NCBI RefSeq assembly: GCF_031583025.1
Contig: NZ_CP134062.1
Location: 2,046,001-2,110,000, forward strand
From: Mycobacterium sp. Z3061
Lineage (GTDB): Bacteria > Actinomycetota > Actinomycetes > Mycobacteriales > Mycobacteriaceae
Direction of reading: 5' to 3'
Length of the DNA stretch: 64,000 bases
Both the position numbers and the translations under genes were made by a program. This document shows positions 16,998 to 32,395 of this stretch, one piece after another. Position 1 is the first letter of the stretch. Each line of letters begins with the position of its first letter. The notes under the pieces were generated by a model, which was not told the origin of the DNA, ran no database searches, and saw nothing but the letters and a program-made list of their open reading frames with translations.

Positions 16998-18038
16998 TTA
17001 CAAAGTCGAGATGTCGATGACGAAGCGGTAGCGCACGTCGCTGGCCAGCACCCGCTCGTAGGCCTCGTTGACGTAATCGGCTTCGATGACCTCGATTTCG
17101 GGCGTCACGTTGTGTTCGGCGCAGAAGTCGAGCATCTCCTGGGTCTCCGCGATCCCGCCGATGTTCGAACCGGACAGGCTGCGTCGTGCCGCGGCCAATG
17201 CGAACGCATGCACCTCCATGGGGTGCTCGGGAATGCCAAGCTCCACCATGGTGCCGTCGACGTCGAGCAGGTTCATGTACTGCCCGAGGTCGAGGTTCGC
17301 CGAGACAGTGTTGAGGATCAGGTCGAAGCTGCCGCGCAGCTTCTTGAAGGTGTCCGGGTCGGCGGTCGCGTAGTAATTGCTTGCGCCCAAACGCAATCCG
17401 TCTTCCATCTTCTTCAAGGACTGGGACAGCACGCTCACCTGGCAGCCCATCGCGGCGCCCAGCTTGACGCCCATGTGGCCCAGGCCGCCCAGTCCGACGA
17501 TGGCCAGCCGGGTGTCCTGTCCGGCTTTCCAATGCCGCAGCGGTGAGAACAGGGTGATGCCGGCGCACAGCAGCGGCGCCGCGGCGTCCAGTGGCAGCGA
17601 CTCGGGGATGTGCACGACGAAGTTCTCGTCCACCACGACCGCCTGGCTGTAGCCACCCTGGGTGGGGGTGCCGTCCTTGTCGGTGGAGTTATAGGTGAAC
17701 GTGGCGCCCTTCTTGCAGTACTGCTCGAGGCCGGCCTTACAGCTGCTGCACTGACCGCAGGAGTTCACCATGCAGCCGACGCCGACGTGGTCGCCGACCT
17801 TGTGCTTGGTGACCTCAGAGCCGACGGCGGTGACCACGCCGGCGATCTCGTGGCCGGGCACCACCGGGTAGTTCGGTACGCCCCATTCGGCTTTGACGGT
17901 GTGGATGTCGGAGTGGCAGATTCCGGCGAACTTGATGTCGATGGCCACATCGTGCGGGCCGGGCTCGCGGCGTTCGATCGTGGTCTTGCTCAGCGGTTCG
18001 GTTGCCGACGTGGCGGCGTATGCGGAAACGGTGCTCAT
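16998..18038 (-). CDS. adhC: Zinc-dependent NADP(H) alcohol dehydrogenase
   Basis: A 346-aa medium-chain dehydrogenase of the cinnamyl/YahK type. Catalytic zinc ligands occur in [10 protein letters not shown] and PGHEIAG, structural zinc ligands in [15 protein letters not shown], and the Rossmann loop is GLGGLGHMG. Three ATGs run in a row; the third (18038) is best spaced from AGAGG. It matches Rv3045 and is followed by fecB in the same direction after 103 bp. It probably reduces aldehydes from lipid metabolism or stress. Confidence 0.94.
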
Positions 18039-18141
18039 CATCATCCTCTGCGTCTGGTTGCTCTATAAAGGTTAGCTAAGGTAACGGTCTGCGCGCCAAT
18101 CGCGGCGGCGTTGCGCTGGTCACTCTCGGTCGATCGTTACT

Positions 18142-19224
18142 TCAGTTGATCGGCGCGTTGATCCAACGCAGATCATTAACGATGCCCCGGGCGGCGATCA
18201 TTCCCTCACCGGTCTGCCAGATCTCGTCATTGACGATGAAGATCCGGTTGTCGCGGTTGGCGCCGAGCCGGCGCCAGGGGGCGCTGTCCAGGACAGTGGC
18301 CGCGCGGTCGGCGGCCGCGGGCCCGGCACACGACACATAGATGATGTCGGCGTCGGCGGCCGAGAAGTCGGGGTTTCTGGACAGGTCGGTGTCGGTGGTG
18401 CCGAACTCCAGGTAGGGCTTGTCGGTGAACCGCTGCGCCGCGGGACGGTCCACGCCGACGGCGCTCAACACGCTGGCGGGGAAGTTGTTGGACCCGTAGA
18501 CGCGCAGCGTGTTGGTGGTCAGCTGCACCACCGACACCTGGAAGTGGGGCGCATCGTGCTTGGTGCCGATATCGGTCGCGCGCTGCCGAAAGCCGTTGAT
18601 CAGCGCGTCGGCGGCGGCACCGCGCGAGGTAGCGGCGCCGACCCCGCGCAGATTGTCCTCCCAGGCCGCACCCGGGGCCGCGGTGAACACGGTAGGCGCG
18701 ATCGCGGCGAGTTGCGGATACAGCGCCGGTGTCAGCGCGACCGAGCCGAGGATCAGGTCCGGGTGGGCCGCCGCGACGGCCTTCAGGTCCGGGGCATTGC
18801 GCGGGCCGGCACCCGGCGCGTCGTGAATCACCTTGCCCAGGTAGGACGGCTGACTCGACGATCCGTCAGGCAGTGCCGCGGCGACGACCCGGGATTGCAG
18901 GCCGAGCGCGCACAGCGAGTCGAGCTGATCTCCGGAGAGGACCACGATGCGTTGGGGGTCGGCCGGCACCTGAACCTCGCCGGGTCCGGCCCCTGCCACA
19001 TTGCGGGCGGGACGCGGGGGACCGGGGTCCGGCGCGGCGGCATCCCGGGCGCACGACTCGTCGGGCTTGCGGTCGTTACCGAGCACCCCGGCACCGGCGA
19101 TCTGGGTGGTCGGCGTTACCAGTGACGACGTGGCCGCGGGTTTGTCCGAACCGCATGCCGATGTCAGGACCAGCGCGGCCGCCGCCACGGCGCTCAGACT
19201 GGTTCGGAAGCCGCCGGATTGCAC
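18142..19224 (-). CDS. fecB: FecB-like siderophore-binding lipoprotein
   Basis: A 360-aa lipoprotein. The signal peptide ends in the lipobox VLTSAC (Cys about residue 24). The rest is a class III periplasmic binding protein of the cobalamin/Fe3+-siderophore type: RIVVLSGDQLDSLCALGL and DLKAVAAAHPDLILGSVAL mark the two lobes. In mycobacteria the homolog Rv3044 is linked to envelope integrity and siderophore binding. It is transcribed away from ctaD; a 176-bp gap separates the starts. Confidence 0.92.
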   Translation of the reverse strand: MQSGGFRTSLSAVAAAALVLTSACGSDKPAATSSLVTPTTQIAGAGVLGNDRKPDESCARDAAAPDPGPPRPARNVAGAGPGEVQVPADPQRIVVLSGDQLDSLCALGLQSRVVAAALPDGSSSQPSYLGKVIHDAPGAGPRNAPDLKAVAAAHPDLILGSVALTPALYPQLAAIAPTVFTAAPGAAWEDNLRGVGAATSRGAAADALINGFRQRATDIGTKHDAPHFQVSVVQLTTNTLRVYGSNNFPASVLSAVGVDRPAAQRFTDKPYLEFGTTDTDLSRNPDFSAADADIIYVSCAGPAAADRAATVLDSAPWRRLGANRDNRIFIVNDEIWQTGEGMIAARGIVNDLRWINAPIN

Positions 19225-21146
<1,922 letters not shown>

Positions 21147-21149
21147 TGA

Positions 21150-22409
<1,260 letters not shown>

Positions 22410-22414
22410 AGCTG

Positions 22415-22476
22415 CGCGAGCAGACACAAACTCGCGTCGGAACACGCGTTCCCGTGCGATTTTGTGTCTGCTCGCG
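22415..22476. repeat. Long perfect hairpin at serB2/hyc junction
   Basis: The arms CGCGAGCAGACACAAA (22415-22430) and TTTGTGTCTGCTCGCG (22461-22476) are exact reverse complements over 16 bp. After one mismatch TCGC pairs with GCGA, and the loop holds a nested GGAAC/GTTCC pair, so nearly the whole element folds. It begins 5 bp after the serB2 stop. It may serve as a terminator; it may also be a dispersed intergenic repeat. No second copy was noticed in this window. Confidence 0.8.
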
Positions 22477-22502
22477 ATGTCGAGGAGACCAACGTCTGAT
22501 AA

Positions 22503-22528
22503 ATTCTTCAATTGTTAAATTGACGAAT
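22503..22528. promoter_or_regulatory. Operator-like inverted repeat of the ArsR regulator
   Basis: A 26-bp AT-rich inverted repeat: core TCAATT-GTTA-AATTGA (22508-22523) extends outward with ATTC on the left and GAAT on the right after one mismatched pair. It ends 15 bp before the ArsR start codon. ArsR-type proteins bind such 12-2-12-like repeats, and Rv0081 of M. tuberculosis binds its own promoter. Confidence 0.72.
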
Positions 22529-22543
22529 CCTTAGCGAGGGTCG

Positions 22544-22888
22544 GTGTCGGAGCCGCTGTACAAATTGAAGGCCGAGTTCTTCAAGACGCTGGGCCACCCG
22601 GCGCGGGTCCGCATCCTGGAGCTGCTGTCGGAACGCGACCACACGGTCGCCGAACTTCTCCCCGAGGTCGGCCTGGAGTCCTCGAACCTGTCCCAGCAGC
22701 TCGCGGTGCTGCGGCGGGCCGGGGTGGTGACGGCGCGCAAGGACGGCAACACGGTCATCTACTCGATCACCTCGCCGCTGATCGCCGAGCTGATGGCGGT
22801 GGCCCGACGAGTGCTGACCGGAATGCTGACCGGCCAGGTCGCCATGCTCGAGGATCTGCGCGCCGACGTCCCCACGGCTCGGCGGTAA
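22544..22888 (+). CDS. ArsR/SmtB-family regulator (Rv0081 type)
   Basis: A 114-aa winged-helix repressor. LGHPARVRILELLSERDHTV and the recognition helix ESSNLSQQLAVLRRAGVV are the ArsR hallmark. There is no CVC metal motif and no cysteine at all, so it is not a classical metal sensor. The GTG start lies 15 bp after the inverted-repeat operator. It leads the complex genes after 6 bp, as Rv0081 leads Rv0082-Rv0087. In M. tuberculosis Rv0081 is a hub of the hypoxia response, which suggests hypoxic control here too. Confidence 0.92.
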   Translation: MSEPLYKLKAEFFKTLGHPARVRILELLSERDHTVAELLPEVGLESSNLSQQLAVLRRAGVVTARKDGNTVIYSITSPLIAELMAVARRVLTGMLTGQVAMLEDLRADVPTARR

Positions 22889-22894
22889 GCGCCG

Positions 22895-23374
22895 ATGAGC
22901 TGGATCGGCAGGATATTGCGTCAGGGCCGGGTTGCCGAACCCGCGGGCGAGCGGCCCGCACCGGCCGTCGCGCCGCCGACCGGCGTGTCCGGCTCGTTGC
23001 AGGTGCGCCACGTCGACGCGGGTTCGTGCAACGGCTGTGAAGTGGAGATCTCCGGGGCATTCGGCCCGGTGTACGACGCAGAACGGTTCGGCGCCCGGCT
23101 GGTCGCATCGCCCCGGCATGCCGACGCGTTGTTGGTCACCGGCGTGGTGACCCGAAACATGGCGCAGCCGTTGCGCAATACCGTGGCAGCCACGCCGTTG
23201 CCCCGGGTGGTGATCGCCTGCGGGGACTGTGCGCTCAACCGCGGCGTGTTCGGTGACGCCTACGGGGTGGTCGGTGCGGTCGGTGACGTGATACCCGTCG
23301 ACGTCGAGATCCCCGGTTGCCCGCCGTCACCCGATCAGGTGGTGGCGGCCCTGAGATCGGTGACGGGCAGGTGA
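22895..23374 (+). CDS. NuoB/HycG-like Fe-S small subunit
   Basis: 159 aa, related to the 20-kDa subunit of complex I and the small subunit of group 4 hydrogenases. Four-iron cluster ligands are visible: C45 and C48 in GSCNGCEVE, C109 (or C112) in IACGDCALN and C142 in PGCPPSP. It would pass electrons to the interface with the large subunit. Its stop overlaps the start of the next gene by 4 bp. It corresponds to Rv0082. The proximal cluster is intact although the partner subunit has lost its Ni site. Confidence 0.9.
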   Translation: MSWIGRILRQGRVAEPAGERPAPAVAPPTGVSGSLQVRHVDAGSCNGCEVEISGAFGPVYDAERFGARLVASPRHADALLVTGVVTRNMAQPLRNTVAATPLPRVVIACGDCALNRGVFGDAYGVVGAVGDVIPVDVEIPGCPPSPDQVVAALRSVTGR

Positions 23375-25341
23375 CGGCGACCCTGGCGCCCGCGGCTGCA
23401 CCGGAGGACCTGCGCCGCAACGGTATTGGCGCAGCGTTGAGCGGGGTTGCGACCGCGGTGACCGGTATCGCAGGTGCGGGGCTGGGCGTCACGGCGGTAT
23501 TCGGTTCGTTGCCGACAGTGTGGCTGCCCTGGCTGCTGCCGCTGAGCGGTGTGGAACTCAGCGTCAACCGGTTGGGCGGGTTCTTCATGGCGTTGACCGG
23601 GGCGGTGGCCGTGGTCGTCGGCATTTACAGCATCGGATACCTGCACCGCGAGCGACTCGGCGTCGTCGCGCAGGTCACGCTGCCGACGTTCGTCGCTGCG
23701 ATGCTGCTGGTGCCCGCCGCCGGTTCGGTGAGCACCTTCCTGCTGGCCTGGGAACTGATGGCGGTCACCTCGTTGATCCTGCTGGCCTCTGGTCATGCCC
23801 GCGCCGAAGTACGTTCCGCCGCAGTCTATTACGCGGTGATGACGCAGCTGGGTTTCGCGGCGATACTGCTCGGTCTGATGGTGGCCGCCGCGGCGGCCGG
23901 CACCGACCGGTTCGCCGGCATCGCCGGTGTGCAAGCAGGGACGCGCAACGCGGTCTTCCTGTTGACTCTGCTGGGATTCGGCTCCAAAGCCGGCCTGCTG
24001 CCGTTGCATGCGTGGTTGCCGCGCGCTCATCCGGAAGCGCCGAGTCCGGTTTCGGCGTTGATGAGTGCCGCTATGGTCAACCTCGGCGTATACGGCATCA
24101 TCAGGATCGACCTGCAGTTGCTCGGACCGGGCCCCCGGTGGTGGGGAGTCACGTTGCTCGGCGTCGGGGCCGTCTCGGCCGTATACGGGGTTCTGCAGGC
24201 GTCGGTGGCCGCGGATCTCAAACGGCTGCTCGGCTATTCGACGATCGAGAACATGGGGCTGGTCATCCTGGCGCTGGGCGCCGCCACCCTGCTGTCGGCC
24301 TGCGGTGCGGTTGCGGCCGCAGTGATCGCGATGACGGCGGCGCTGCTGCACCTGGTCGCGCACGCCGCGTTCAAGAGCCTCGGGTTCATGGCCGCCGGTT
24401 CGGTGTTGGTGGCCACCGGTGAACGCGACCTCGACCGGATGGGTGGACTGGCCCGGCGGATGCCCTTCACGACAACGCTTTTCGGGATGGCCGCGCTCGG
24501 CGCGTCGGGGTTGCCACTGGGCGCGGGATTCGTCAGCGAATGGCTGTTGGTACAGTCGCTGATTCACGCACGGCCGGAACACGATTCGTTGCTCGGACTG
24601 GTGACACCGGTCGGCGTCGGCGCAGTGGCACTGACCACGGGGCTGGGTGTGGCAGCGATGGTCAAGGCATTTGGCACCGGCTTCCTGGCGCGAGCGCGCT
24701 CCGAGGGTGCCGAGTGGGCGCGCGAGGCGCCGGTCAGCATGATCATCGGCATGGCCGGGGCGGCCGTCGGCTGTGTCGTCCTGGCGGTGCTGCCATCGGT
24801 CGTCACCGCAGCCCTGCAATCGGTGCTGCACAGCGTGCCGGCCGCCCGCGACGCCGATCTCCGTGGACTCGGTATCGTGTTGCGGCTGCCCGGGATTCAC
24901 GGCTCTATGTCGCCCGCCCTGTTGGCTGCGGCACTGGCCGGCGCGGTGCTGGTCGTCGTGGCGCTGACCAGGTGGGGAGCACGGCACCGCCCCGAGCCGG
25001 TGACATCGCCGTTGTGGGCCTGTGGCGCAGACGGCCTGACGCCTCGGATGCAGTACACCGCAACATCATTCGCGCAACCGCTGCAGAGGGTTTTCGATGA
25101 CGTGCTGCGCCCCGATAGCGGTATCGAGGTGACGCACCTGGAGGAGACCCGCTACCACGTCGCGCGGATCGCATACCGCACCAACGTCTCCGACGCCGTC
25201 GAAGACCGGGTCTACGCGCCGGTGCTACGCACGGTCGCGAGGTGTGCACAGGCGGTCCGCCGGGCGCACAACGGAAGTGTGCACCTGTACCTGGCCTACG
25301 GCGTGCTCGGTGTGTTGATCGTTCTGGTGGTGGCGCGGTGA
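23371..25341 (+). CDS. HyfB/NuoL-like membrane antiporter subunit
   Basis: A 656-aa polytopic protein with about 15 hydrophobic helices and a Proton_antipo_M core. Channel residues appear in LLAWELMAVTSLIL (Glu in TM5) and SKAGLLPLHAWLPRAHPEAP (Lys and His in TM7-8); LLHLVAHAAFKSLGFMA carries the later His/Lys pair. It should move ions across the membrane. The GTG start at 23371 overlaps the previous stop. It corresponds to Rv0083 and pairs with a second antiporter-like subunit at 26964. Confidence 0.9.
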   Translation: MTATLAPAAAPEDLRRNGIGAALSGVATAVTGIAGAGLGVTAVFGSLPTVWLPWLLPLSGVELSVNRLGGFFMALTGAVAVVVGIYSIGYLHRERLGVVAQVTLPTFVAAMLLVPAAGSVSTFLLAWELMAVTSLILLASGHARAEVRSAAVYYAVMTQLGFAAILLGLMVAAAAAGTDRFAGIAGVQAGTRNAVFLLTLLGFGSKAGLLPLHAWLPRAHPEAPSPVSALMSAAMVNLGVYGIIRIDLQLLGPGPRWWGVTLLGVGAVSAVYGVLQASVAADLKRLLGYSTIENMGLVILALGAATLLSACGAVAAAVIAMTAALLHLVAHAAFKSLGFMAAGSVLVATGERDLDRMGGLARRMPFTTTLFGMAALGASGLPLGAGFVSEWLLVQSLIHARPEHDSLLGLVTPVGVGAVALTTGLGVAAMVKAFGTGFLARARSEGAEWAREAPVSMIIGMAGAAVGCVVLAVLPSVVTAALQSVLHSVPAARDADLRGLGIVLRLPGIHGSMSPALLAAALAGAVLVVVALTRWGARHRPEPVTSPLWACGADGLTPRMQYTATSFAQPLQRVFDDVLRPDSGIEVTHLEETRYHVARIAYRTNVSDAVEDRVYAPVLRTVARCAQAVRRAHNGSVHLYLAYGVLGVLIVLVVAR

Positions 25342-26297
25342 ACGTCATGTCAGCGGTTGCCGGTGCGGCCCAGATCGGCGGGGTCATGGTGGGCGCACCG
25401 CTGATACTGGGGTTGATGCGCCAGGTCCGGGCCCGCTCGGAGGGGCGGTGCGGCGCGGGCGTTCTGCAGCCGTGGCGCGATCTGCGCAAGCAGCTGCGCA
25501 AGCAGCAGGTCAAGCCGTCGGGCACCACGCTGGTCTTCGCGGCCGCGCCGGTTCTGCTCGCGGCCACCACTTTGCTGATCGCCGCGATCGTGCCACTGGT
25601 GGCAACCGGCTCACCGCTGGACCCCGTCGCCGACCTGTTCGCTGTGGTGGGTCTGCTCTTCCTGGGAACGGTGGCCCTGACGTTGGCGGGCATAGACACC
25701 GGCACGTCCTTCGGTGGCATGGGCGCCAGCCGCGAGATCACCATTGCCGCGCTGGTGGAGCCGACGATTCTGCTCGCCGTCTTTGCGTTGTCCATTCCCG
25801 CCCGCTCGGCCAACTTGGGCGCGATCGTCGGGTTCACCCTGGCCAACCCGGGCGAGGTGGTGTCGCTGGCGGGAATCCTGGCTTTCGTCGCGCTGGTGAT
25901 CGTCGTCATCGCCGAAACCGGGCGCTTGCCGGTGGACAATCCCGCCACGCACCTGGAATTGACCATGGTGCACGAGGCGATGGTGCTCGAGTATGCCGGG
26001 CCCAGGCTGGCACTCGTCGAGTGGGCGAGCGCGATGCGCCTGACGGTGCTTTTGGCGTTGCTGGCGAATCTGTTCCTGCCGTGGGGGATTGCCGGCGATC
26101 AGCCCACCGCGCTCGGCGTCGGCATCGGCATAATCGCCATCAGCATCAAAGTCGCCCTTGCCGCCGTCGTTCTGGCCGGCGCTGAGGTGTTCATCGCCAA
26201 GTTGCGGCTCTTCCGCGTGCCGGAGTTGCTGGCCGGGTCTTTTCTGCTTGCTCTGCTCGCGGTGAGCTCGGCGAACTTCTTTGCGGCGCAGGGGTGA
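25338..26297 (+). CDS. hycD: HycD/NuoH-like membrane subunit
   Basis: A 319-aa membrane protein with about eight helices that links the Fe-S arm to the antiporter modules. [30 protein letters not shown] is the NuoH/HycD signature, keeping the acidic residues of the coupling funnel (E in AETGR, E in LELT, HEA). The GTG start overlaps the previous stop by 4 bp; an ATG three codons later is an alternative. It corresponds to Rv0084 (hycD). Confidence 0.9.
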
Positions 26298-26301
26298 TGC
26301 G

Positions 26302-26964
26302 ATGAGCGATCTCGACTATTCCGGCGTGCTGGATCTGGCACCAGGGGGACTGGTGCTGACCGCGGTGCTGATCGTGTGGCGCCGCGACCTGCGTTCGATC
26401 GCGCGGTTGCTGGCGCTGCAGGGCGTGGCCCTGGCCGCGATCCCGGTCATTCTCGGTGTGCACGGCCGGGATTGGGAGCTGGTCGGCGTGGGGGCGGCCC
26501 TGTTCGTGCTGCGCGGCGTGGTGCTGCCCGGGCTGCTCGCGCATGCGCTGGGTGCCGAGGAGCGCCAACAGCGCGAGGCCACACCGTTGGTCAACACCAC
26601 CGCATCGCTGCTGATCGCCGCGGCGCTCACGGTGGTCGCCCTGGCGGTCACCCGCCCGGTGGTCGACCTGGATCCCGGCGCCGCCGTCAGTGTGGTCCCC
26701 GCGGGGCTGGCGGTGGTGTTGATCGCGATGTTCGTGATGGTCACTCGGCGCCACGCCATTTCCCAGGCCGCGGGTTTTCTGATGTTGGACAACGGGATTG
26801 CGGCCACCGCCTTCCTGTTGACGGCGGGGGTGCCACTGATCGTCGAACTCGGCGCGTCGCTGGATGTTCTGTTCGCCCTGATCGTGCTGGGGGTGCTGAC
26901 CGGCCGACTGCGGCGCATGCTCGGCGGCGCCGACCTGGACCGGCTGCAGAGATTGCGGGATTGA
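26302..26964 (+). CDS. hycP: HyfE/NuoK-like membrane subunit
   Basis: A 220-aa protein with about six or seven helices. The HyfE class corresponds to NuoK with extra helices; the [30 protein letters not shown] region carries the membrane Glu and Asp residues of that family. ATG at 26302 follows the hycD stop by 4 bp, and the stop overlaps the next start (TGATG). It corresponds to Rv0085 (hycP). Confidence 0.85.
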
Positions 26965-28445
26965 TGACGGGATCGATCACAGCGGGCCTGATTCTGGCGC
27001 CGATACTGGCGCCGGCGCTAGCCGCCATCGTCGCGTTGGCCGGTGGGTGGCGACGCTGGACCACGGCGCTCACCGTGGTGTCCGCGTTGGTTGTGCTGGG
27101 ATCCGCAGCGGCACTGGGCATTACGACCGGTGCCCGGCCGCGGCTGGCGCTGGGCGGGGTGTTGCGCACCGACGCGCTCTCGGTCACGATGCTGATCGTC
27201 ATCGGCCTCGTCGGCACCCTGGCGACCTGGGCGAGCATCGGCTACATCGACGCCGAACTGGCTCACGGCCACACCGATCGGCGCGACGCCCGCCTGTACG
27301 GCGCCCTGACTCCGGCGTTCCTGGCGGCGATGGCGGTCGCGGTGTCGGCCAACAACATCGGGGTGATCTGGGTGGCCGTCGAAGCAACCACAGTGATCAC
27401 GGCGTTCCTGGTTGGCCACCGTCGCACCGCCACCGCGCTGGAAGCCACCTGGAAGTACGTGGTGATCTGTTCGGTCGGCATCGCCGTCGCGTTCCTGGGC
27501 ACGGTCTTGTTGTACTTCGCCGCGCGTCATGCCGGCGCCGACGGGGCGAGCGCGCTGAACCTCGATGTCCTCGGCTCCCGCGCCGCACATCTGGACCCGG
27601 CAGTCACCCGGCTCGCCGGCGGGCTGTTGCTGATCGGGTACGGCGCGAAGGTCGGACTGGTTCCGTTCCACGGGTGGCTGGCCGATGCGCACAGCCAGGC
27701 GCCGGCGCCGGTTTCGGCGCTGATGAGCGGAGTGCTGCTCTCCGTTGCCTTCTCGGTGCTGATCCGGCTGCGGACGATCATCGACGCCGCCGTGGGGCCG
27801 GGCTTTCTGCGGGCCGGACTGCTGACGGTGGGACTTGCCACCGTATTGATCGCCGCGCTATTGCTGACTGTCGCAACCGATCTCAAGCGGATGCTGGCCT
27901 ACTCATCAATGGAGAACATGGGACTGATCGCGGTGGCGGCGGCCGCGGGCACCAAGCTGGCGATCGCGGCGCTGCTGTTGCACGTGCTGGCGCACGGCGT
28001 CGGTAAGACGGTGCTGTTCCTGGCCGGTGGGCAGTTGCAGGCCGCGCACGGCTCGACGGTGATCGACGACATCAGCGCCGTGCTGTCCCGCTCGCGCTTG
28101 ATAGGCGTGTCATTCGCCGCCGGAGTTGTTGTCCTGCTTGGCTTGCCGCCGTTCGCCATGTTCGCCAGCGAAATCTCGATCGCGCGGTCGCTGGCGGACG
28201 CCCGGTTGTCCTGGGTGCTCGGCACCGCACTGCTGCTGATGGTCGTGGCGTTCGCGGCCCTGGTCAGCAACTCCCGGCGCATCCTGCTCGGAACGCCGGA
28301 CGAGCATGCGCCGCCCATTGCGGTACCCACCACGGTGGCAGGTGCTCTGGTGTGTGGCGTGGTGGCGTCGCTGGTGCTGGGTGTGACGGCGGGTCCGTTG
28401 ACGGCATTGTTCAGTGCGGCCGCCGGCCAGTTCGGAGCCGGGTGA
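26964..28445 (+). CDS. hycQ: HyfF/NuoN-like membrane antiporter subunit
   Basis: A 493-aa polytopic antiporter-like subunit with about 13 helices. Key channel features: WVAVEATTVITAFLVGH (TM5 Glu), GYGAKVGLVPFHGWLADAHSQAPAPVSALMSG (TM7-8 Lys and His) and LLHVLAHGVGKTVLFLAGG (later His and Lys). It is a second ion-moving module of the complex and overlaps both neighbours by one base. It corresponds to Rv0086 (hycQ). It is paralogous in layout to the 23371 subunit. Confidence 0.9.
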   Translation: MTGSITAGLILAPILAPALAAIVALAGGWRRWTTALTVVSALVVLGSAAALGITTGARPRLALGGVLRTDALSVTMLIVIGLVGTLATWASIGYIDAELAHGHTDRRDARLYGALTPAFLAAMAVAVSANNIGVIWVAVEATTVITAFLVGHRRTATALEATWKYVVICSVGIAVAFLGTVLLYFAARHAGADGASALNLDVLGSRAAHLDPAVTRLAGGLLLIGYGAKVGLVPFHGWLADAHSQAPAPVSALMSGVLLSVAFSVLIRLRTIIDAAVGPGFLRAGLLTVGLATVLIAALLLTVATDLKRMLAYSSMENMGLIAVAAAAGTKLAIAALLLHVLAHGVGKTVLFLAGGQLQAAHGSTVIDDISAVLSRSRLIGVSFAAGVVVLLGLPPFAMFASEISIARSLADARLSWVLGTALLLMVVAFAALVSNSRRILLGTPDEHAPPIAVPTTVAGALVCGVVASLVLGVTAGPLTALFSAAAGQFGAG

Positions 28446-29902
28446 TGGAGCGGCGTGAGGTCACCGGCGATGAACTCGCCCACGCGGTAGGGGAGTTGCT
28501 GGACAATGGGTTTCGTTTGGCGTTGGTGGCCGCTCACGATGACGGCCATGCGGTCCGGATCGTGTATCTGCTCCTGGCCGGCGCGCCGGACCGCCGCGTC
28601 GAGCTCACCCTGACGACCGACGCAACCAGCCCGTCGGTGCCGTCGCTGGGTCATCTGTCGATTCCCGCGGGCCGCTTCGAGCGGGAGATGATGGACCTCT
28701 ACGGGGTGACGCCGGTCGGCCATCCGCAGCCGCGGCGGTTGGTCAGCCACGCGCACTGGCCGCAGGACTGGCATCCGATGCGGCATGATGCCGGGCGGCC
28801 GCCGGAATTCGCTACGGTCGGCGCATTTCCGTTCGTGACCGTCGACGGCACCGGGGTCTACGAGATCCCGGTCGGACCGGTGCATGCCGGTCTGATCGAG
28901 CCCGGACACTTCCGGTTCTCGGTGATCGGTGAATCGGTGCTGCGGCTCAAGGCGCGACTGTGGTTCGTGCACAGGGGAATTGAAAAGCTCTTCGAAGGCC
29001 GGGCGGTCGCGGACGGCGTCGAGTTGGCCGAGCGGATAAGCGGCGACAGCGCCGCGGCTCACGCTCTTGCGTACTGCCTGGCCGTGGAGGACGCGCTCGG
29101 CGTCGAAGTACCAGAACCGGTGCACCGGTTGCGGGCCCTGCTGGTCGAACTCGAACGGCTCTACAACCACGCCACCGACCTGGGTGCACTCGCTAACGAT
29201 GTCGGCTTCGCACTGGCCAACGCGCATGCTCAGCGTGTCCGCGAGTCGGTGCTGCGGATCAATCGTCGCGTCACCGGACACCGTCTGCTGCGTGGCGGGA
29301 TCCAGCCGGGAGGCGTTGTGCTCCAACAGCTCCCGGATCCCGCGGAATTGCGGGTGCTGGCCGCTGAGATTGCGGAGATCAGCGAGCTGACACTGGGCAA
29401 CCCGGTGATCTACGACCGGTTCGCCGAGACCGCGGTGCTGCGTCGCGACGACGCCCGCGCCCTCGGTTGCCTGGGCTACGTCGCCCGCGCCAGCGGCATC
29501 AGCACCGACGCCCGCCGCGACCACCCGACCACCGACCTGCCGATCTCGACCGTGCAGGGCGGCGAAGGCGACGTGCTGGCCCGCTACACGATGCGGCGCG
29601 ACGAGTTCGCCGCATCCACCGAGCTGATCGCGGCGTTGATCGAACCGCACAGTGGCCCGCTGGAATATCGCGCACCGGTGCCCACGGCCGGGACCTCCGG
29701 AGTGGGGATCGTGGAAGGGTGGCGAGGCACCGTGGTCCACCGGGTCGAGGTGGACGCCGGGTTCGTCACGCGATGCAAGGTGGTCGACCCGTCGTGGTTC
29801 AACTGGCCCGCCCTGCCCGTCGCGATGGCGGACACGATCGTGCCGGACTTCCCGCTGGCCAACAAGAGCTTCAACCTCTCCTACGCCGGCAACGACCTCT
29901 AG
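28445..29902 (+). CDS. hycE: HycE-like large subunit lacking Ni-Fe site ligands
   Basis: 485 aa. Residues about 10-115 resemble NuoC (GRFEREMMDLYGVTPVGHPQ) and the rest NuoD/HycE (HRGIEKLFEGRAVADGVELAERISGD). The two CxxC motifs that bind Ni-Fe in hydrogenases are replaced: SGDS at 199-202 where HycE has CGIC, and DPSWFNW at 448-454 where it has DPCxxC. A true H2 site is therefore not possible as read. This fits energy-converting hydrogenase-related complexes. It corresponds to Rv0087 and is last in the run; the ABC gene starts 72 bp later. Confidence 0.9.
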   Translation: MERREVTGDELAHAVGELLDNGFRLALVAAHDDGHAVRIVYLLLAGAPDRRVELTLTTDATSPSVPSLGHLSIPAGRFEREMMDLYGVTPVGHPQPRRLVSHAHWPQDWHPMRHDAGRPPEFATVGAFPFVTVDGTGVYEIPVGPVHAGLIEPGHFRFSVIGESVLRLKARLWFVHRGIEKLFEGRAVADGVELAERISGDSAAAHALAYCLAVEDALGVEVPEPVHRLRALLVELERLYNHATDLGALANDVGFALANAHAQRVRESVLRINRRVTGHRLLRGGIQPGGVVLQQLPDPAELRVLAAEIAEISELTLGNPVIYDRFAETAVLRRDDARALGCLGYVARASGISTDARRDHPTTDLPISTVQGGEGDVLARYTMRRDEFAASTELIAALIEPHSGPLEYRAPVPTAGTSGVGIVEGWRGTVVHRVEVDAGFVTRCKVVDPSWFNWPALPVAMADTIVPDFPLANKSFNLSYAGNDL

Positions 29903-29973
29903 CCCCGCGACGGTCCCGCGAGGTAACGCGACCCGGCAGTGAAAGCGGGCACGCGGTACGGCACGATGGGCGG

Positions 29974-30816
29974 GTGCCCGAACCCGGCTCGCTCGAGGCC
30001 GATCCCGACCTGCTGATCGACTTCAGAAATGTGTCGCTGCGCCGCGGCGGTCGCACCCTGGTGGGCCCGCTGGACTGGGCCGTCGAACTCGACGAACGCT
30101 GGGTGATCATCGGCCCCAACGGCGCCGGCAAGACCTCGCTGCTGCGCATCGCGGCCGCCTCCGAGCACCCCACCAGCGGCACCGCCTTCGTGCTGGGGGA
30201 GCGGCTCGGCCGGGTCGACGTCAGTGAACTGCGGTCGCGGATCGGTCTGAGCTCCTCCTCCTTGGCGCAGCGCATACCGTCCGACGAAGTGGTGCGTGAC
30301 CTCGTCGTGTCGGCCGGCTACTCGGTGCTCGGTCGATGGCGCGAGCAATACGAGGACGTCGACTACCGGCGCGCGGTCGACATGCTGGAAAGCCTGGGCG
30401 CCGAACATCTCGCCGAGCGTACCTACGGGACGCTGTCCGAAGGCGAACGCAAACGGGTGCTGATCGCGCGCGCGCTGATGACCGACCCCGAACTGCTGCT
30501 GCTCGACGAGCCGGCGGCCGGCCTGGACCTGGGCGGCCGCGAGGAACTGGTGGCCCGGCTGGCCGACCTGGCAGCCGACCCCGACGCGCCGGCCCTGGTC
30601 CTGGTCACCCACCACGTCGAGGAAGTGCCACCCGGATTCAGCCACTGCCTGCTGCTGTCGGAGGGCCAGGCCGTCGCGTCGGGTCTGCTGCCCGACGTGC
30701 TGACCGCCGAGAATCTCTCCACCGCCTTCGGGCAGCGGATCGCGCTCGATGTGGTCGACGGGCGCTACTTCGCCCGCCGCGTGCGGACCCGTGCAGCTCA
30801 TCGGAGAAGCTCATGA
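29974..30816 (+). CDS. ABC transporter ATP-binding protein (Rv3041c type)
   Basis: A 280-aa ATPase. Walker A GPNGAGKTS (about residue 45), signature LSEGERKRV, Walker B LLLLDEPAAG and the switch His in LVTHH are intact. No permease gene is adjacent, so its transport partner lies elsewhere or it has a soluble role. The GTG at 29974 is the first plausible start after hycE. It overlaps the NUDIX gene by 4 bp. In M. tuberculosis it directly follows serB2; here the hyc-type locus separates them. Confidence 0.92.
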   Translation: MPEPGSLEADPDLLIDFRNVSLRRGGRTLVGPLDWAVELDERWVIIGPNGAGKTSLLRIAAASEHPTSGTAFVLGERLGRVDVSELRSRIGLSSSSLAQRIPSDEVVRDLVVSAGYSVLGRWREQYEDVDYRRAVDMLESLGAEHLAERTYGTLSEGERKRVLIARALMTDPELLLLDEPAAGLDLGGREELVARLADLAADPDAPALVLVTHHVEEVPPGFSHCLLLSEGQAVASGLLPDVLTAENLSTAFGQRIALDVVDGRYFARRVRTRAAHRRSS

Positions 30817-31631
30817 ACGAACCGCAACTACCCCTGCCGGCCCGCCCGGCCGCCACCGTGATGCTCGTGCGGGACGCTCCCGGGGGCCTCAACATCTTCC
30901 TGATGCGCCGGCACTCCGCGATGGAGTTCGCACCGGGCGTCATCGTGTTCCCCGGCGGCGGGGTCGACGACCGCGACCGCAACGCCGATATCGCATGGGC
31001 CGGCCCGCCGCCGGAGTGGTGGGCGCAGCGGTTCGGCATCGAGACCGACCTGGCGATCGCGCTGGTCTGCTCGGCGGCCCGGGAGACGTTCGAGGAATCC
31101 GGGGTGCTGTTCGCCGGACCGGCCGACGACCCCGACGGTATCGTCGGCGACGCCTCGGTGTACCGCGAGTCGCGGCACGCGCTGGCCGACCGCACGCTGT
31201 CCTTCGCCGACTTCCTGCGCGGCGAGAAGCTGGTGCTGCGCTCCGACCTGCTGCGGCCCTGGGCCAACTGGGTCACCCCGGAAGCCGAGCGCACGCGCCG
31301 CTACGACACCTACTTCTTCGTGGCGGCCCTGCCCGAGGGGCAGCGCGCCGACGGCGAGAACACCGAGTCTGACCTGTCCGGCTGGGCACTCCCGCAGGAC
31401 GCCATCGCCGACTTCGAGACCGGTCGCAATGTCCTGCTGCCGCCGACCTGGACCCAGCTGGACTCGCTGGCCGGCCGCAGCGTCGCCGAGGTGCTGGCCG
31501 TCGAACGCCAGATCGTGTCCATCCAGCCACTGCTGGAGAAGCGCGGCGACAACTGGGTCTTCGAGTTCTTCGACTCCGACCGCTACCACCGGGCGCGCGA
31601 GGCCGGCGGATCGATGCAGTGGCCGCTTTGA
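30813..31631 (+). CDS. NUDIX hydrolase
   Basis: A 272-aa protein. The N-terminal strand [11 protein letters not shown] leads to a Nudix domain; the Nudix box is read from GGGVDDRD through [18 protein letters not shown], which gives the REx2FEESG metal-binding core. The insertion between GG and the RE helix is longer than usual, as in NUDT19/CoA-pyrophosphatase-like members. The substrate is probably a nucleotide or CoA derivative. It overlaps both the ABC gene (4 bp) and echA17 (13 bp) and corresponds to Rv3040c. Confidence 0.88.
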
Positions 31632-32395
31632 GTGAGTTCGTGAGCGTCGTGGTCAGCGACGGCTCCCAGGACGCCGGGCTGGCCATGCTGTTGCTGTCGC
31701 GGCCACCTACCAACGCGATGACCCGGCAGGTCTACCGGGAGGTCGTCGCCGCGGCGGAGGAGTTGGGCCGGCGCGACGACGTCGCCGCGGTGATCCTGTT
31801 CGGCGGGCACGAGATCTTCTCCGCCGGTGACGACATGCCCGAACTGCGGACTTTGAACCCGGACGAGGCCGGCACCGCCGCCCGGGTGCGGCGCGAGGCC
31901 ATCGACGCGGTCGCCGCGATCCCGAAGCCCACCGTCGCCGCCATCACCGGATACGCCCTGGGCGCCGGGCTCACGCTGGCGCTCGCCGCCGACTGGCGGG
32001 TCAGCGGCGACAACGTGAAGTTCGGCGCCACCGAGATCCTGGCCGGCCTGGTGCCCGGAGGCGACGGCATGGCCCGCCTGACCCGCGCCGTCGGGCCGAG
32101 CAGAGCCAAAGAACTGGTGTACAGCGGGCGGTTCTTCGATGCCGAGGAGGCGCTGGCGCTGGGCCTGATCGACGACATGGTGGCCCCCGACAACGTCTAC
32201 GACGCCGCGGCGACGTGGGCGCGGCGCTTCCTGGACGGTCCGCGGCCGGCCCTGGCCGCCGCGAAAGCCGGCATCAACGCCGTGTACGACGGTTCCCCGG
32301 CAGCCGAACGCCACGCCGCCGAAGATCGCCGCTACATCGAGGTTTTCGCCGCTGGTCAGGACGCTGACGCGAAAGCCGACAGCGACGGCGGTTAG
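31619..32395 (+). CDS. echA17: Enoyl-CoA hydratase/isomerase family protein
   Basis: A 258-aa crotonase-fold enzyme. [13 protein letters not shown] provides the first oxyanion-hole strand, [19 protein letters not shown] the second, and [14 protein letters not shown] the active-site Glu region. It likely hydrates trans-2-enoyl-CoA in fatty-acid or sterol breakdown. A GTG start at 31619 overlaps the NUDIX gene; a TTG three codons later is also possible. It corresponds to Rv3039c. Confidence 0.9.

What the first reader, a model, noticed from the sequence alone, without database searches (positions are those of the whole stretch)
28445..29902. Hydrogenase-like large subunit has lost both Ni-binding CxxC motifs
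In HycE and other group 4 hydrogenases the Ni-Fe site is bound by two CxxC motifs. Here they read SGDS (residues 199-202) and DPSWFNW (448-454), while the Fe-S small subunit keeps its cluster cysteines and the membrane subunits keep their ion-path residues. The complex should therefore couple some other redox reaction to ion movement. Such Ehr-type complexes have no proven substrate, which makes this the strongest candidate here for an uncharacterised system.
Basis: partly seen in the sequence, partly recalled or inferred. Interest (0 to 1): 0.75.

Follow-up and report, generated by a model that had tools for sequence, protein, structure and literature searches.

The report
Nickel-less hydrogenase-like membrane complex (Ehr)
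This mycobacterial operon encodes a known but unexplained relative of respiratory complex I that has lost its nickel site; some relatives elsewhere have also lost the iron-sulfur cluster while keeping the rest, which suggests that the machine may move ions without doing redox chemistry.

Summary
The gene at 28445-29902 encodes a 485-residue relative of HycE/NuoD with no cysteine at any of the four nickel positions. The first motif is S199-G-D-S202, as reported. The second was misplaced: DPSWFNW (448-454) is another conserved motif; the counterpart of the C-terminal CxxC is S479-Y-A-G482, just before the protein ends at L485. Homologues share the replacement, so it is no sequencing error.

The operon (ArsR regulator plus six subunits) is a typical Ehr (energy-converting hydrogenase-related) complex; the M. 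tuberculosis locus was already called Ehr in print (PMC6728331). It is a new member of a known kind.

New here is evidence against the inference 'some other redox reaction'. The operon has one Fe-S cluster site and no ferredoxin-type subunit. In at least two independent lineages of the same type, the small subunit has lost most or all cluster ligands, while the core of the large-subunit pocket and the ion-path residues stay and the genes remain under purifying selection. I favour an ion-translocating complex whose pocket activity does not need electrons (about 50%); single-cluster redox coupling is the main rival (about 35%).

The parts
22544..22888 (+). ArsR/SmtB-family regulator (Rv0081-like by recall), first gene of the cluster
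   Evidence: NCBIfam NF033788 over its cut-off; Pfam HTH_5; an ArsR-like ORF lies in 25 of 35 actinobacterial stretches
22895..23374 (+). small subunit (NuoB/HycG/MbhJ-like, EhrS); predicted cluster ligands C45 (23027), C48 (23036), C112 (23228), C142 (23318)
   Evidence: Pfam Oxidored_q6; PDB hits FHL HycG 5.1e-34, MbhJ 2e-32; ligand columns
23371..25341 (+). antiporter-like subunit, HyfB/NuoL type; GTG start overlapping the previous stop (an upstream TTG at 23317 gives the longest frame)
   Evidence: NCBIfam 'hydrogenase 4 subunit B' 1e-163, below its cut-off; E146, K224, K353 in 79 of 79 rows, E408 in 78 of 78; start
25338..26297 (+). NuoH/HycD-like membrane anchor
   Evidence: Pfam NADHdh; E142, E194, D201, E208, E214, E219 in 82 of 82 rows
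26302..26964 (+). HyfE-like membrane subunit
   Evidence: NCBIfam 'hydrogenase 4 membrane subunit' 3e-21, below its cut-off
26964..28445 (+). antiporter-like subunit, HyfF/NuoN type
   Evidence: NCBIfam 'hydrogenase 4 subunit F' 2.6e-98, below its cut-off; E142, K231, K350 in 91 of 91 rows, E405 in 83 of 91
28445..29902 (+). large subunit (NuoCD/HycE-like, EhrL) without Ni ligands
   Evidence: AlphaFold2 model pLDDT 88.9, pTM 0.91; closest solved fold FHL HycE 7z0s_E, TMq 0.90
29039..29050 (+). first former Ni motif, S199-G200-D201-S202 (HycE CGIC)
29879..29890 (+). second former Ni motif, S479-Y480-A481-G482 (HycE CYSC); not 448-454

Best explanation
A six-subunit Ehr complex: a complex I/group 4 hydrogenase-type membrane ion translocator whose [NiFe] site has been replaced by a conserved polar pocket (S199-G-D201-S/T202 ... 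N477-x-S479-Y-x-G482-N483-D484, plus H147). SHOWN by sequence: no Ni ligands, ion-path residues present, one cluster site, no ferredoxin-type, flavin or formate subunit in the operon, tight gene overlaps. INFERRED: it moves H+ or Na+ through the HyfB/HyfF/HycD-type subunits, driven or gated by binding or (de)protonation of a ligand in that pocket, and this pocket activity does not need electrons from the small subunit's cluster, because homologues with the same pocket core dispense with the cluster. In mycobacteria, where the ligands are kept, the cluster would be structural, a redox/O2 sensor, or a secondary electron entry. The ligand is not identified.
For: Identity. Six-gene module: all six seen in 60 of 80 named loci (57 by the ORF panel alone), in 15 of 20 and 39 of 40 fetched stretches. 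No HycF, HycB or NuoE/F/G/I-like ORF in a window-type operon by BLAST with E. coli queries; hits only far off in L099 and in other types (L216, L217, L225). Cluster loss: of the 80 loci, 13 had no small subunit in view; of 63 window-type (D201) rows 57 had four ligand Cys (one, L110, with the Cys pair shifted), 2 three, 3 one, 1 none. With targeted additions, duplicates within the set dropped: 85 full (83 distinct), 6 partial, 16 lost. Pocket core in the lost set: N473 and K474 16/16, N477, S479, Y480, D484 15/15, G482 14/15. Lost state: two changes on the tree; one common clade rejected, p-AU 1.5e-42. dN/dS of degenerate small subunits 0.017-0.171 (four partial pairs, two lost pairs; two more CPR pairs saturated) against 0.077-0.104 in four cluster-bearing pairs. 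Path residues listed under parts are invariant except HyfF E405; the alignments hold 17, 16 and 17 ligand-less rows for HyfB, HycD and HyfF, three of each duplicates. A further Ni-less type in three Microbacteriaceae genomes (L253-L255) also lacks the ligands (D, D, D, A/S). Two Patescibacteria-phylum hits that keep four Cys are Ni-type hydrogenases (L256, L257).
Against: Most members keep all four ligands, and so do all Mycobacterium small subunits read: 14 of 14 loci of the window's genus fetched as stretches (L228-L241; L233 is the same as L076), L075, L077, L078, L086 and the window, so the cluster is under selection in this lineage. Some Ehr with the D201 motif carry two ferredoxin motifs in the small subunit (L213-L215), which looks like an electron input. 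The pocket is not wholly unchanged in ligand-less rows: N483 is N in 9 of 15 (70 of at least 82 in full rows) and position 202 is M or A in 3 of 16. L199, one of the lost rows, has a ferredoxin-type motif elsewhere in its small subunit, and HyfB, HycD and HyfE were not found in its stretch. Of seven genomes with degenerate small subunits searched, six have no other NuoB-like match at E<=1e-5, but G813 has two, of complex I type with cysteines. Ligand-less lineages may have changed function. The Patescibacteria-type sequences are largely metagenome assemblies. D201 was my selection criterion. No ligand or transport was shown. Passages of PMC6349859 favour redox coupling and name Mbx as a related complex with a redox role.
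Confidence: 0.5

Rival explanations
1. Redox Ehr: a soluble low-potential carrier (ferredoxin, flavodoxin or similar) docks on the exposed face of the small subunit, passes electrons through its single [4Fe-4S] cluster to a small substrate in the pocket (quinone, disulfide, polysulfide or other), and this drives ion pumping as in MBH, MBS or complex I. Ligand-less relatives then have a derived function.
For: Four ligands kept in all mycobacterial small subunits read; hydrogenase-type CxxC spacing; ferredoxin motifs in the small subunits of L144 and L213-L215; MBS is a precedent for a Ni-depleted member that reduces polysulfide (PMC7684303 passages); published expectation (PMC6349859 passages).
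Against: No ferredoxin-type subunit in the window's operon; pocket core unchanged in lineages that lost the ligands; the Tyr of the Nqo4 quinone site aligns to G200 (the role of the Tyr from PMC7684303) and the cysteines that MBS retains are absent.
Confidence: 0.35
2. Non-redox chemistry in the pocket coupled to ions, involving inorganic carbon or C4 acids (hydration or decarboxylation), as a specific form of the favoured reading.
For: Neighbours in some lineages: SulP-type transporter in four methanotroph loci, PEP carboxykinase in Kibdelosporangium, Kutzneria and Lentzea, a protein with a weak malic-enzyme match beside it, ACS-epsilon-like and 2-oxoacid oxidoreductase-like genes in Nitrospira-type loci.
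Against: Lineage-specific; none beside the window's operon; not compared with a genomic background.
Confidence: 0.06
3. It is still a formate hydrogenlyase or H2 enzyme, as the hyc names of the M. tuberculosis genes say.
For: HycE is the closest solved relative; the genome encodes HypD twice.
Against: All four Ni ligands replaced in the window and in the window-type rows; no HycB, HycF, HycI or formate dehydrogenase gene among the seven genes.
Confidence: 0.01
4. The complex is a decaying remnant.
For: Patchy: 45 of 148 genus genomes at E<=1e-60; one homologue has an internal stop (G031).
Against: Intact overlapping frames; dN/dS 0.08-0.19 for small, large and HyfB subunits between the window and two relatives; conservation across phyla.
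Confidence: 0.02

Closest known systems
Ehr (energy-converting hydrogenase-related complex), including the M. tuberculosis Rv0081-Rv0087 locus
   Same: No Ni ligands, antiporter-like subunits, large and small subunit, ArsR-type regulator; PMC6728331 (passage) names the M. tuberculosis locus Ehr and not a functional hydrogenase; PMC6688271 (passage) names ehrABCDLS in Methylacidiphilum
   Different: The host genome here has HypD, so the lack-of-maturation argument of PMC6728331 does not apply and the ligand loss itself decides; the M. tuberculosis and Methylacidiphilum sequences were not fetched
Formate hydrogenlyase / hydrogenase 3 and 4 (HycE, HyfG)
   Same: Fold and subunit homology; closest PDB match
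   Different: No Ni ligands, no HycB, HycF, HycI; protein ends right after the second motif
MBS sulfane sulfur reductase of Pyrococcus
   Same: Ni-depleted large subunit in a complex I-like machine
   Different: MBS keeps two of four Cys and has three clusters, one with three Cys ligands (PMC7684303 passages); the window has none of the four Cys and one cluster site
Respiratory complex I (NuoB/NuoCD/NuoH/NuoL/NuoN)
   Same: Homologous core, His of GPxH kept
   Different: No NuoE, F, G, I; Tyr of the quinone site aligns to G200; the genome has its own NuoC and NuoD elsewhere
Mrp antiporters
   Same: Antiporter-like subunits (recalled)
   Different: Mrp lacks the hydrophilic arm (PMC7684303 passage)

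Membership tests
Ehr | Large subunit homologous to group 4 hydrogenases but without the Ni-binding CxxC pairs | tested here: met
Ehr | Large plus small subunit with four membrane subunits (ehrABCDLS-like set) | tested here: met
   the six-letter gene name is from a passage of PMC6688271
Ehr | Antiporter-like subunits with ion-path residues | tested here: met
Ehr | Phylogenetic place with other Ehr, apart from group 4 hydrogenases and complex I | tested here: inconclusive
   Window groups with Ni-less sequences apart from HycE/HyfG and NuoD; published Ehr reference sequences were not placed by name, only taxa (Nitrospira, CPR) in which papers report Ehr
Ehr | Redox-coupled ion translocation | not testable with these tools
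   needs purified complex
Group 4 [NiFe] hydrogenase / formate hydrogenlyase | Four Ni-ligating cysteines | tested here: not met
   S199, S202, S479, G482
Group 4 [NiFe] hydrogenase / formate hydrogenlyase | Ferredoxin-type subunit (HycF/HycB) | tested here: not met
   only seven genes between 22544 and 29902
Respiratory complex I | NADH module NuoEFG and NuoI, quinone-site Tyr | tested here: not met
MBS sulfane reductase | Two retained cysteines and three Fe-S clusters | tested here: not met
   for the cysteines; definition from passages of PMC7684303
Mrp antiporter | No hydrophilic arm | tested here: not met
   small and large subunits present

The most novel reading that the evidence does not exclude
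Ehr complexes of this type are complex I-family machines that have given up redox chemistry: the former [NiFe] cavity is a ligand- or proton-binding site that gates or drives ion movement, and the last Fe-S cluster is accessory and has been discarded at least twice, perhaps three times counting a further Ni-less type. [quoted passage not shown]
Probability: 0.4. Interest if true: 0.85.

Novelty: new member of a known kind. Interest (0 to 1): 0.5.

Why it matters
Ehr-type sequences are widespread (mycobacteria, Streptomyces-type actinobacteria, Nitrospira, Rokubacteria, methanotrophs, Patescibacteria), and the passages read that discuss function call it unknown or only suspected. If the pocket works without the cluster, the search for a redox substrate is misdirected and the question becomes directly testable: compare cluster-bearing and naturally ligand-less complexes for ion transport. 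It would also give a minimal system for how a complex I-type cavity drives ions without electrons.

Tried and rejected
Considered and rejected: formate hydrogenlyase (no Ni ligands); complex I fragment (own NuoC/NuoD elsewhere); sequencing error; pseudogene. A conserved electron-donor gene beside the operon was sought among 80 named loci and not found; neighbours are lineage-specific and were not set against a background. A DosR-type box was sought in the window with up to 3 mismatches: 0 matches (consensus recalled). Promoter and terminator scans gave about what shuffles give. A one-clade test on 13 Patescibacteria-type rows rejected the clade because L138, which lies inside it, had been left out; with L138 the 14 rows are one side of a branch with weak support 76/64. 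Tree counts cannot tell loss from gain; loss is inferred because the Ni-type sisters and NuoB have the cysteines.

Rows dropped: L199 from the careful tree (long branch); thirteen short, cut or redundant large subunits and NuoD and HycE-type rows from the trees; L200, L201, L208, L210 as duplicates and L202 for want of a large subunit; L233 and L244 duplicate L076 and L085. In one search the L205/L206 large-subunit pair (dN/dS 0.549) uses overlong ORFs and is not trusted. The numbers are biased, because degenerate small subunits were the queries. Not all 80 loci show the whole module: in stretches of 19-21 kb L111 shows only the large subunit, L129 no HycD, L148 no small subunit, L153 no HycD or HyfE; most other gaps are at contig ends. 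L058, which I had first grouped as Ni-type, lacks one of the four cysteines. Whether ligand-less small subunits are in print was checked only by searches of an open-access library (listings seen, plus passages of PMC7304191 and PMC4378227); none showed it, and two Ehr papers (PMC7894505, PMC3569383) could not be opened.
Full report
WHAT IS THERE. The window lies in a one-contig 6.79 Mb genome (G000). Among the named loci the nearest large subunit is that of Mycobacterium persicum, 81% identical, so it is a mycobacterium or close to one. Seven genes run on the + strand from 22544 to 29902: an ArsR regulator, a NuoB/HycG-like small subunit, a HyfB/NuoL-like, a NuoH/HycD-like, a HyfE-like and a HyfF/NuoN-like membrane subunit, and the large subunit of the finding. 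Successive genes overlap or lie within a few bases, so I take this as one operon. There is no HycB, HycF/NuoI or NuoEFG gene among them.

THE LARGE SUBUNIT. The 485-residue protein is a NuoC-NuoD fusion-type relative of HycE (PDB 7z0s_E, E=5.5e-55; T. thermophilus Nqo4 3.4e-29; MbhL 1.6e-26). The AlphaFold2 model is confident (pLDDT 88.9, pTM 0.91) except in places, lowest at residues 145-153, the loop of GPxH; the closest solved fold is again E. coli formate hydrogenlyase HycE (TMq 0.90). The four Ni-ligand positions are S199, S202, S479 and G482. In alignment A1 (19 chosen window-type sequences, 42% identity or more to the window) S199-G-D201 and S479-Y-x-G482-N-D-L are invariant.

FAMILY AND DISTRIBUTION. 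Matches: 45 of 148 genomes of the genus (E<=1e-60), 24 of 298 of the order (E<=1e-50), 37 of 396 of the phylum (E<=1e-40; this looser set also holds Ni-containing and other Ni-less types). All six subunit genes are seen in 60 of the 80. An ArsR-like ORF lies in 25 of the 35 actinobacterial stretches and directly upstream in three of four Rokubacterial ones; I found no other partner that recurs across phyla. On the tree a group of nine rows (Bryobacterales, Myxococcales, Bacillota and actinobacterial-phylum genomes) that ends SFELCYxCxDR is one side of a branch, support 100/99; eight of the nine keep all four Ni cysteines, L058 has lost one. Against Ni-type rows the window type differs at C199, position 201, C202, E477, C479, C482 and R485: the former metal site was replaced by a largely conserved polar site.

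WHAT IS KNOWN. These complexes are called Ehr. I read passages, not whole papers. PMC10284858, PMC4378227 and PMC6728331 call the function unknown. PMC6349859 says Ehr are suspected to couple redox reactions to charge translocation, proposes a formate dehydrogenase-Ehr complex in some lineages, and cites Mbx as a related complex with a ferredoxin:NADP role. PMC7304191 reports Ehr in CPR bacteria without the Ni cysteines. The HydDB classifier excludes Ehr (PMC5037454). PMC6688271 names ehrABCDLS and suggests a role in pH homeostasis among other systems. PMC6728331 calls M. [quoted passage not shown] Others still call that locus a formate hydrogenlyase. The defining paper, Marreiros 2013, and He 2011 were seen only as citations. 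In the window's genome HypD is present twice and a further NiFe-hydrogenase-like match exists (L003), so here the ligand loss itself, not absent maturation, speaks against a hydrogenase.

IS IT A REDOX ENZYME? The window's small subunit has one cluster site (C45, C48, C112, C142; extra C109). I read the same columns in the other small subunits. In the named set, 13 of 80 loci had no small subunit in view; of the other 67, three were Ni-type and one other, with four Cys each; of 63 window-type (D201) rows, 57 had four (in L110 the pair is shifted), two had three (both Cryobacterium isolates), three had one and one had none. I then searched with degenerate small subunits. In the Daviesbacteria phylum 13 of 331 genomes matched: ten had lost three or four ligands (states such as TCDD, DCDD, TEGD, SEGD, DADN), one was cut by a contig end, and two kept all four but belong to Ni-type hydrogenases with both CxxC pairs. 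In the Microbacteriaceae 11 of 249 matched: six had three Cys, two had one, and three had none; the last three (L253-L255) belong to a further Ni-less type (RVEGIAS, SFGxxYAGVAM). Two actinobacterial-phylum genomes carry the TCDD type too (L211, L212).

Totals for the window type after dropping duplicates within the set: 85 full rows (83 distinct), 6 partial, 16 lost, 13 without a small subunit; besides these, 7 other Ni-less and 8 Ni-type rows (L253-L257 came later and are not in these counts). On the careful tree, which left out L199, the lost state needs two changes (88 rows with a known state); forcing the lost rows plus L138 into one clade is rejected (p-AU 1.5e-42). The degenerate small subunits are under purifying selection (dN/dS 0.017-0.171: four partial pairs and two lost pairs; two CPR pairs were saturated). 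One of them is modelled as the usual NuoB fold (pLDDT 79.6; MbhJ rmsd 2.4, TMt 0.86). Of seven such genomes searched whole, six have no other NuoB-like match at E<=1e-5; G813 has two more, of complex I type.

The core of the large-subunit pocket does not change with cluster state: N473 and K474 16/16, Y480, S479, N477 and D484 15/15, G482 14/15 in the lost set. It is not untouched: N483 is N in only 9 of 15 and position 202 is M or A in 3 of 16; R197, beside the first motif, is mostly Q in Microbacteriaceae. The path residues of HyfB, HycD and HyfF types listed under parts are invariant also in the ligand-less rows, except HyfF E405 (83 of 91 overall). The natural reading is that what the pocket does, it can do without electrons from this cluster.

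MECHANISM. I favour an ion translocator gated or driven by ligand binding or protonation in the polar pocket, with the cluster accessory (structural or sensing) where it is kept. The main rival is a single-cluster redox machine fed by a soluble carrier; Ehr with ferredoxin motifs in the small subunit (L213-L215), the persistence of the cluster in all mycobacterial loci read and the published expectation speak for it. Neither transport nor a ligand has been shown, and the hint of inorganic-carbon or C4-acid neighbours (SulP, PEPCK, malic-enzyme-like, ACS-epsilon-like) is too lineage-specific to build on.

VERDICT. The finding is real, with one motif misplaced; it is a known kind of complex; the redox inference is not safe. 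The comparison of cluster-bearing and naturally ligand-less Ehr is what makes the old question testable.

Noticed in passing
window 16998-32395: The Ehr operon follows genes that I recognise as adhC, fecB, ctaD and serB2 and precedes an ABC ATPase, a MutT-like and an enoyl-CoA hydratase gene (names recalled, order as in the M. tuberculosis serB2 region by recall). The serB2/ctaD/fecB/adhC side recurs in four relatives (L228, L229, L231, L232) but was not detected in ten other loci of the genus (L230, L233-L241), so the operon's place varies.
   Followed up: partly
L107, L122, L146, L149, L191-L198, L207, L211, L212: NuoB-like small subunits of Ehr operons without most or all Fe-S ligands.
   Followed up: yes
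L253-L255 (G1151, G1369, G1322): A further Ni-less complex in Microbacteriaceae: large subunit RVEGIAS and SFGxxYAGVAM, small-subunit ligand columns D, D, D, A/S.
   Followed up: partly
L144, L213-L215: Small subunits with two CxxCxxCxxxC ferredoxin motifs; in L144 the domain is N-terminal (Pfam Fer4). L144 keeps the Ni ligands, L213-L215 do not.
   Followed up: partly
L216-L219, L226, L227: Further Ni-less large-subunit types (SGTD, AATT, SGTS); L216 and L217 have a HycF-like ORF and ligand columns CCPS in my alignment.
   Followed up: no
L199 (G990:C4:108000-123500): Small subunit without the four ligands but with one ferredoxin-type motif; HyfB, HycD and HyfE not found in the stretch.
   Followed up: no
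L078, L082, L083, L085, L087: A roughly 270-residue protein (no Pfam match for the L078 and L082 copies; weak malic-enzyme similarity for L082) lies near Ehr, with PEP carboxykinase beside it in L082, L083 and L085 (Pfam run on L082).
   Followed up: partly
L140, L141, L150, L152: SulP-family transporter gene upstream of the Ehr operon in methanotroph genomes (Pfam and NCBIfam run on L141; the others by BLAST cluster).
   Followed up: partly
G134:C4:3803432-3807384 and G031:C1:5431034: Two copies of the large subunit side by side in one genome of the genus; an internal stop in the homologue of another.
   Followed up: no
G000:C1:2363556 and 4354350; L003: The window's genome has two HypD genes and a separate NiFe-hydrogenase-like protein closest to sulfhydrogenase-type alpha subunits, below cut-off on a 102-residue slice.
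   Followed up: no
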